Part shown: positions 1 to 1,155 of the stretch, piece after piece
Position numbering within the stretch: the first letter of the stretch is position 1
Layout of the letters: the number at the start of each line of letters is the position of its first letter
From: Pseudomonas sp.
Lineage (GTDB): Bacteria; Pseudomonadota; Gammaproteobacteria; Pseudomonadales; Pseudomonadaceae
NCBI GenBank assembly: GCA_029240955.1
Contig: JARDZH010000055.1
Span: 1-8,549 of the forward strand
Direction: 5' to 3'
Length of the DNA stretch: 8,549 nucleotides
Program-made: the position numbers and the translations under genes
The notes under the pieces: model-generated
Told to the model about the DNA's origin: nothing
Databases searched by the model: none
Seen by the model: only the letters and a program-made list of their open reading frames with translations

Positions 1-1155
1 CACCTGCTCAATCCGCGAGCGAGCCCAGGACCGCGTCTACTCGCAACTGGGTCGCTGGCGTGAACTCAAGCTGGCCAAGCCCGACATGGTGATCGCCGTG
101 GGCGGCTGCGTGGCGAGTCAGGAAGGCGCCGCCATCCGTGACCGCGCGCCCTATGTCGACGTGGTGTTCGGCCCGCAGACACTGCACCGCCTGCCGGAAA
201 TGATCGACGTGGCCCGGGTCACGCGCCTGCCGCAAGTCGACGTCTCGTTCCCGGAAATCGAAAAGTTCGACCACCTGCCAGAGCCTCGCATCGACGGTCC
301 AAGCGCGTACGTGTCGGTCATGGAAGGCTGCAGCAAGTACTGCACGTTCTGCGTCGTGCCTTATACGCGCGGCGAAGAGGTCAGCCGTCCGTTCACAACG
401 GCGTGCGTGAAGTCACGCTGCTGGGCCAGAACGTGAACGGTTATCGCGGCGCGACCCATGACGGCGGCGTCGCCGATCTGGCCGACCTGATCCGGGTCGT
501 CGCGGCGGTCGATGGCATTGATCGCATCCGCTAGACCACGTCTCACCCGCTGGAGTTTTCCGACAGCCTGATTCAGGCCCACGCGGAAGTCCCGGAGCTG
601 GTCAAGCATCTGCACTTGCCGGTTCAGTCCGGTTCGGATCGGATCCTGGCGGCGATGAAGCGCAACCACACGACCCTCGAATACAAATCCCGACTGCGCA
701 AGCTGCGGGCTGCGGTGCCGGGTATCAGTATCAGCTCGGACTTCATCGTCGGATTCCCGGGCGAAACCGAGAAAGACTTCAATGACACCATGAAGCTGGT
801 GCAGGACGTGGGCATCGACTTCTCGTTCTCGTTCGTCTACAGCCCGCGTCCTGGCACCCCGGCTGCGGACTTGAAGGACGACACGCCGGAAAGCGTGAAG
901 AAGGAGCGGCTGGCTGCGTTGCAGCATCGCCTGAATCAGCAGGGCTTCGAGATCAGCCGACAGATGGTCGGCAGTATTCAGCGCATTCTGGTCACGGATT
1001 ATTCCAAGAAAGACCCGGGCGAGTTGCAGGGCCGGACCGAGAACAACCGGATCGTCAATTTCCGCTGCGATAACCCCAAGCTGATCGGCCAGTTCATCGA
1101 CGTGCACATCGACGACGCCCAGCCGCATTCGCTGCGTGGCTCATTGCTGCAATAA
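1..1155 (+). pseudogene. miaB: miaB remnant (tRNA-2-methylthio-N6-dimethylallyladenosine synthase), 5'-truncated by the window, frameshifted and with a premature stop
   Basis: MiaB is a radical-SAM methylthiotransferase that turns i6A37 into ms2i6A37 in tRNAs reading U-initial codons. Frame 2 from the left edge reads TCSIRE (cluster-ligand Cys at 5-7), then GGCVASQ (Cys at 107-109) of the N-terminal methylthiotransferase domain, then the radical-SAM C-x3-C-x2-C CSKYCTFC (Cys codons at 329, 341, 350) and VPYTRGEEVSRPF. After TTC 392-394 the family sequence jumps to frame 1 at NGVREVTLLGQNVNGYRG (from 397). About 12 codons (DDVIAEVIHLAE-like in relatives) are missing, a net loss of about 34 bases. 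Left in frame 2, translation stops at TGA 434-436. Frame 1 has a second lesion: TAG at 532-534 where relatives read RIRYTTSHP, so the Tyr codon became amber. From 535 to TAA 1153-1155 the rest of the barrel and the C-terminal TRAM domain look intact, ending RGSLLQ. The family comparison is from memory. Identity is near certain, and loss of function is very likely. Confidence 0.93.

What the first reader, a model, noticed from the sequence alone, without database searches (positions are those of the whole stretch)
380..540. miaB carries two independent inactivating lesions
At 394-397 the MiaB reading moves from frame 2 to frame 1 with about 12 family codons missing (net about 34 bases), and 135 bases later the conserved Tyr of RIRYTTSHP is a TAG codon (532-534). 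All other visible MiaB sequence, including the 4Fe-4S cysteines and the TRAM domain, is well kept, so the damage looks recent. One lesion could be an assembly error, but a multi-base deletion plus a separate nonsense change is harder to explain that way. If real, this strain lacks ms2i6A37 unless a second copy exists, which would affect reading of U-initial codons (Phe, Leu UUR, Tyr, Cys, Trp and some Ser) and frame maintenance.
Basis: partly seen in the sequence, partly recalled or inferred. Interest (0 to 1): 0.75.

Follow-up and report, generated by a model that had tools for sequence, protein, structure and literature searches.

The report
Freshly broken tRNA-modification gene miaB
A Pseudomonas DNA fragment carries what looks like a freshly broken copy of miaB, a gene that finishes a chemical mark on tRNA, and a survey of relatives suggests that dozens of other Pseudomonas species live without this gene altogether.

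Summary
Against 20 relatives the window's miaB alone lacks 34 bases after base 394, and codon 532-534 is a TAG made by a private base. The rest of miaB is well kept and the seven other reading frames are open.

The window is probably a whole 8549-base contig. Its closest held relative is Pseudomonas sp. v388 (L001, 87-89% DNA identity). Its own genome is not held, so a second copy cannot be tested directly. miaB shows little sign of relaxed selection: the damage is very recent, or an artefact.

The wider picture changes the meaning. In 62 of 398 Pseudomonas species genomes MiaB gives only a RimO-level best match, and 0 of those 62 pass the MiaB model cut-off. Four of the 62 may be incomplete assemblies. 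In 28 of 30 inspected loci miaB is missing from its usual place. MiaA is kept in 62 of 62, MiaE in 61 of 62. One of these genomes encodes a MiaE identical to a solved MiaE chain, 6zma. Best reading: a real, recent pseudogene, in a genus that loses miaB repeatedly.

The parts
1..394 (+). miaB, first visible part (frame 2): UPF0004 domain end and radical-SAM Cys motif; 5' end off the contig
   Evidence: TIGR01574 44-176, PF00919; 99% aa identity to L001
394..395 (+). Junction of a 34-base deletion; frame moves from 2 to 1
   Evidence: Gap only in the window row against 20 relatives; pairwise with L001
434..436 (+). First stop met by translation coming from upstream, out of frame
   Evidence: ORF 2-436
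400..531 (+). miaB, middle part (frame 1), between the deletion and the premature stop
   Evidence: 95% aa identity to L001
532..534 (+). Premature TAG stop in the downstream miaB frame
   Evidence: Read from the sequence; base 534 private to the window
535..1155 (+). miaB, last part with its normal stop: rest of the radical-SAM domain and TRAM domain (958-1149)
   Evidence: TIGR01574 234-436; PF04055 and PF01938; 98% aa identity to L001

Best explanation
The contig carries a real, very recently inactivated miaB. A 34-base deletion splits the radical-SAM domain and a separate nonsense change follows. The N-terminal product keeps the visible Fe-S cysteines but loses much of the catalytic domain and TRAM; any C-terminal product lacks those cysteines. 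Neither should methylthiolate tRNA (inferred from the known family, not tested). With MiaA and MiaE probably still in the genome (inferred from relatives), A37 of UNN-reading tRNAs should end as i6A and io6A instead of ms2io6A. The loss is tolerable, because the same gene has been lost at least twice, and probably three or more times, elsewhere in Pseudomonas.
For: Both lesions are private among 21 rows and are of different kinds. Bases 1-394, nearest the contig end, are clean: 0 private amino acids in 131 codons. Private bases in miaB are 15, within the 2-25 of the 20 relatives, so there is no local error excess. Seven other reading frames on the contig are open. No second MiaB was seen in 398 genomes (limits given in the report). 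Absence of MiaB is natural in the genus: 62 of 398 genomes without it, 28 of 30 inspected loci without the gene in its usual place.
Against: No reads and no whole genome. Short contig, lesions near its end. Hardly any decay otherwise: with the private counts seen (4 amino acids, 12 synonymous), a neutral period of a tenth of the branch predicts 0.15 stops, P 0.14 for at least one. All 20 compared group members keep miaB intact.
Confidence: 0.65

Rival explanations
1. Assembly or sampling artefact: miaB is intact in the organism, and this end of a short contig records a rare variant, a chimeric read or low-coverage errors.
For: Contig of 8549 bases with lesions about 0.4-0.5 kb from its end; no reads to check; little other decay; all 20 compared relatives intact.
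Against: Two lesions of different kinds; the 394 bases even nearer the end are clean; no excess of private bases; the other seven reading frames are open; no microhomology seen at the deletion against L001 (by eye), so a simple repeat collapse does not explain it.
Confidence: 0.27
2. Real lesions, but an intact miaB elsewhere in the genome or another enzyme keeps ms2i6A present.
For: The genome is not held, so this cannot be tested directly. In PAO1 ms2i6A did not fall significantly in a miaB deletion, and its authors suppose further enzymes (PMC9754610, passages).
Against: Extra matches in the five genomes with more than two were RimO copies, split RimO or one split MiaB. PA14 miaB mutants lost ms2i6A and ms2io6A 14-fold (PMC12300143, passages).
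Confidence: 0.06
3. The two pieces still work together as a split or recoded MiaB.
For: Both pieces are well conserved.
Against: About 11 residues inside the radical-SAM part are missing; recoding would have to cross a deletion and a stop; none of 76 relatives' miaB frames is split.
Confidence: 0.02

Closest known systems
MiaB, tRNA i6A37 methylthiotransferase (TIGR01574; solved chain 7mjv)
   Same: Gene place, domains and sequence: 95-99% aa identity of the pieces to intact MiaB of L001.
   Different: Reading frame broken twice; each piece scores 174 and 256 bits, under the cut-off of 355.3.
Natural absence of miaB in other Pseudomonas (P. putida-like and P. huaxiensis-like clades, G345)
   Same: Same genus, same place beside phoH, MiaA kept in 62 of 62 and MiaE in 61 of 62.
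   Different: There the gene is gone; only P. huaxiensis keeps a detected remnant. The window lies in another group, next to L001, and its gene is nearly whole.
miaB transposon and deletion mutants of P. aeruginosa (PMC12300143 and PMC9754610, passages)
   Same: MiaB function removed by experiment.
   Different: Made in the laboratory; the two studies disagree on whether ms2i6A falls.
Frame-broken miaB in G361 and G320
   Same: A full-length miaB with its frame broken.
   Different: One frameshift each in the alignment, no large deletion; either may be a sequencing error.

Membership tests
Functional MiaB (TIGR01574) | Score over the curated cut-off of 355.3 bits for the whole protein | tested here: not met
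   Pieces score 174 and 256.3 bits; the first 140 bases of the gene are off the contig
Functional MiaB (TIGR01574) | One uninterrupted frame from UPF0004 through radical SAM to TRAM | tested here: not met
   Frame change after 394 and TAG at 532-534
Functional MiaB (TIGR01574) | Radical-SAM CxxxCxxC cysteines | tested here: met
   Cys codons 329-331, 341-343, 350-352
Functional MiaB (TIGR01574) | Three N-domain cysteines for the second cluster | tested here: inconclusive
   Two seen (5-7, 107-109); the place of the first lies off the contig (recalled family knowledge)
Functional MiaB (TIGR01574) | Methylthiolation of i6A37 | not testable with these tools
   Needs LC-MS of tRNA
Pseudogene of miaB | Inactivating lesions absent from relatives | tested here: met
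   Both private among 21 rows
Pseudogene of miaB | Relaxed selection after loss | tested here: inconclusive
   4 private amino acids against 12 private synonymous codons; L001 0 against 17
Pseudogene of miaB | Lesions present in the organism's DNA, not only in the assembly | not testable with these tools
   No reads and no whole genome
Pseudogene of miaB | No intact copy elsewhere in the genome | not testable with these tools
   Genome not held; second copies not seen in relatives

The most novel reading that the evidence does not exclude
Methylthiolation of A37 is an optional step in Pseudomonas that has been dropped several times. A large P. putida-like clade, a P. huaxiensis-like clade and at least one more lineage run a shortened MiaA-MiaE pathway whose end product is io6A, a zeatin-type tRNA base, and the window is a new loss caught in the act in another group. 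The P. putida MiaE, described as an ms2i6A hydroxylase, would then meet only i6A in its own cell.
Probability: 0.5. Interest if true: 0.65.

Novelty: new member of a known kind. Interest (0 to 1): 0.45.

Why it matters
One broken gene on a short contig is a small thing. It led to something larger and testable: many Pseudomonas species, including one whose MiaE equals a solved MiaE chain (6zma), show no MiaB. At least one paper discusses P. putida decoding as if ms2io6A were made there (PMC9481147, passage). If the absences hold, P. putida is a natural miaB-null model for what the methylthio group at A37 does: UNN decoding, UGA readthrough, links between Fe-S status and translation. Its tRNA-derived cytokinins should then be of the plain kind, not the methylthiolated kind (inference).

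Tried and rejected
Second MiaB copy: not seen in relatives, within the limits stated in the report. Repeat-mediated deletion: no microhomology seen against L001 (by eye). Local excess of sequence errors: none. RNA families in the window: 0 at the gathering score. Inverted repeats of 14 or more bases downstream of miaB: 0, although folding shows a strong hairpin. A closer genome than L001: none among the 392 genomes searched, which is not all of the genus. A protein search with the C-terminal piece listed many MiaB fragments; only 120 of 8000 were shown and none was followed up. A paper search by three P. putida locus tags found 0. Dropped from the claim of real absence: four of the 62 genomes, namely G005 and G277 (contig ends 227 and 139 bases upstream of phoH) and G288 and G368 (3.6 and 2.7 Mb, taken as incomplete). 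Results against a simple picture: genome G198 (locus L212) keeps miaB inside the putida-like clade; one clade for the 23 putida-like rows is not rejected (p 0.51), and one clade for the putida-like plus huaxiensis-like rows is only weakly rejected (p 0.037).

Full report
What is there. The window holds, in order, miaB without its first 140 bases (1-1155; against the start found), phoH (1418-2428), ybeY (2421-2921), corC (2927-3769), lnt (3790-5310), an ElyC/DUF218 gene on the minus strand (5332-6093), a 123-aa minus-strand frame that matched no Pfam or NCBIfam family, and the start of leuS (from 6860). It is probably a complete contig: a database protein identical to part of the miaB C-end, marked as the window's own, lies on a contig of 8549 bases. 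The source genome is not held. The closest held relative is Pseudomonas sp. v388 (L001; 86.8-88.8% DNA identity); no closer one appeared among 392 genomes.

The two lesions. Aligned with miaB of 20 relatives (P. syringae, P. viridiflava, P. cichorii and similar by record title), the window alone lacks 34 bases after base 394, and base 534, which makes codon 532-534 a TAG, is private (pairwise with L001). No other row has an inner gap. The deletion removes about 11 residues after the radical-SAM cysteine motif and shifts the frame; the stop lies about 137 bases on. Intact L001 MiaB aligns with the solved MiaB 7mjv over residues 3-439, both places included. What would be left is one piece with the visible cysteines and one with the rest of the radical-SAM domain and TRAM; neither should act (inference).

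How old is the damage? Private amino acids against private synonymous codons, compared with 18 relatives, were 0/7 in 2-394, 1/1 in 400-531 and 3/4 in 535-1152; L001 gave 0/7, 0/2 and 0/8 for the same stretches. The window's neighbours gave phoH 2/12, ybeY 2/6, corC 0/9, lnt 7/30, elyC 21/29, leuS 7/17. Private bases in miaB were 15, against 2-25 in the 20 relatives. Of all single changes in the visible codons 3.0% make a stop; a neutral tenth of the branch predicts 3.6 amino-acid changes and 0.15 stops. So the damage is very recent, or it is not in the organism at all. This result counts against my own reading too.

Artefact? Against: two kinds of lesion, clean sequence on both sides including the bases nearest the contig end, seven other open frames. 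For: a short contig, closeness to its end, few signs of decay. Reads would decide.

Second copy? MiaB of L001 was searched in 398 Pseudomonas species genomes drawn from a larger group. At most four candidates per genome were scored there and only the best matches were printed, so for most genomes with two matches I infer MiaB plus RimO and did not see the second. Five genomes showed more than two matches (G086, G114, G206, G210, G361); examined singly with all candidates scored, the extra ones were weak RimO-level matches, whole or split, or a MiaB split by a frameshift. No genome was seen with two MiaB.

The unexpected part. With the TIGR01574 model 0 of these 62 passed the cut-off, and 5 of 5 genomes chosen as controls did. 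The phoH region was sought in all 62 and found in 61; loci were kept for 30. In 28 of these 30 miaB is missing from its place: 19 have the DUF1820 gene 165-389 bases from phoH and 9 have the Sel1-repeat gene next to phoH; none of the 30 loci holds N runs. In the other 2 (L118, L119) the contig ends just upstream of phoH, so nothing can be said. The other 32 genomes were not inspected at the locus. The name hemL for the aminotransferase upstream is recalled; Pfam gives class-III aminotransferase. P. huaxiensis (L041) keeps a remnant matching MiaB residues 395-442 at 65% identity. MiaA passes its cut-off in 62 of 62 and MiaE in 61 of 62 (not in G277); over all 398 genomes MiaE is found in 391. 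I set aside G005, G277, G288 and G368 as unresolved or incomplete, which leaves 58. Separately, G361 and G320 hold a full-length miaB with its frame broken, and G129's is cut by a contig end.

Which lineages? PhoH+YbeY codon trees (138 rows; 62 rows; both with 28 miaB-less rows) put these in a P. putida-like clade (23 rows, with the keeper L212 inside a 24-row set of support 100/100), a P. huaxiensis-like clade (4 rows, 100/94) and one lone row (L120). The fewest changes counted are 3, and the count cannot tell gain from loss. One clade for the 23 is not rejected (p 0.51); one clade for 23 plus 4 is weakly rejected (p 0.037). The label P. putida-like rests on MiaE: that of G162 (L174) is identical over 204 residues to the solved chain 6zma, and 29 further MiaE loci of miaB-less genomes are 88-99.5% identical. 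That 6zma is the P. putida KT2440 enzyme is recalled; a paper on 'MiaE from Pseudomonas putida' is cited in reference lists I saw but is not held. In G162 the DUF1820 gene and phoH are 235 bases apart with no miaB between (L128). The window groups with L001 (96/64) among rows that keep miaB.

What follows. In PA14, miaB mutants gained i6A and io6A 14- and 7.8-fold and lost the methylthio forms 14-fold (PMC12300143, passages). In PAO1, a miaB deletion raised i6A about 9-fold but did not lower ms2i6A significantly (PMC9754610, passages; repeated in PMC10962704, passages). The two studies disagree, so the chemical outcome in miaB-less Pseudomonas is a prediction: i6A and io6A. PMC9481147 (passage) discusses P. 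putida MiaE as turning ms2i6A into ms2io6A. Six literature searches listed no paper whose title or abstract start says that P. putida lacks miaB (rows shown: 15 of 55, 12 of 42, 12 of 20, 15 of 15, 6 of 6, 6 of 6). Most subscription papers are not in that library, so it may be known.

Verdict. Observation confirmed. Interpretation partly supported: probably a real and very fresh pseudogene (0.65), with an artefact as the main rival (0.27). The recurrent absence of miaB in Pseudomonas is better supported than the window's own lesion, and more interesting.

Noticed in passing
62 of 398 Pseudomonas genomes; loci L118-L147, L040, L041: MiaB is absent while MiaA and MiaE are kept, including in a genome whose MiaE equals the solved chain 6zma.
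   Followed up: partly
L212 (genome G198): A miaB-keeping genome, with miaB in the usual place beside phoH, sits inside the putida-like clade of miaB-less genomes: several losses or a regain.
   Followed up: no
L041:7392-7535: P. huaxiensis keeps a C-terminal miaB remnant (residues 395-442, 65% identity) beside phoH.
   Followed up: partly
L126, L130, L132, L136, L139, L141, L143, L146, L147: In nine miaB-less loci no DUF1820 gene is found beside phoH either; the Sel1-repeat gene is the neighbour.
   Followed up: no
genomes G361 (L178) and G320 (L180): Two other Pseudomonas genomes hold a full-length miaB with its frame broken; these may be sequencing errors.
   Followed up: partly
window 1204-1275: Strong REP-like hairpin between miaB and phoH (fold z-score -7.8); the inverted-repeat search missed it. 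REP-like is a recalled label.
   Followed up: partly
window 6180-6551, minus strand: A 123-aa reading frame without a Pfam or NCBIfam family.
   Followed up: no
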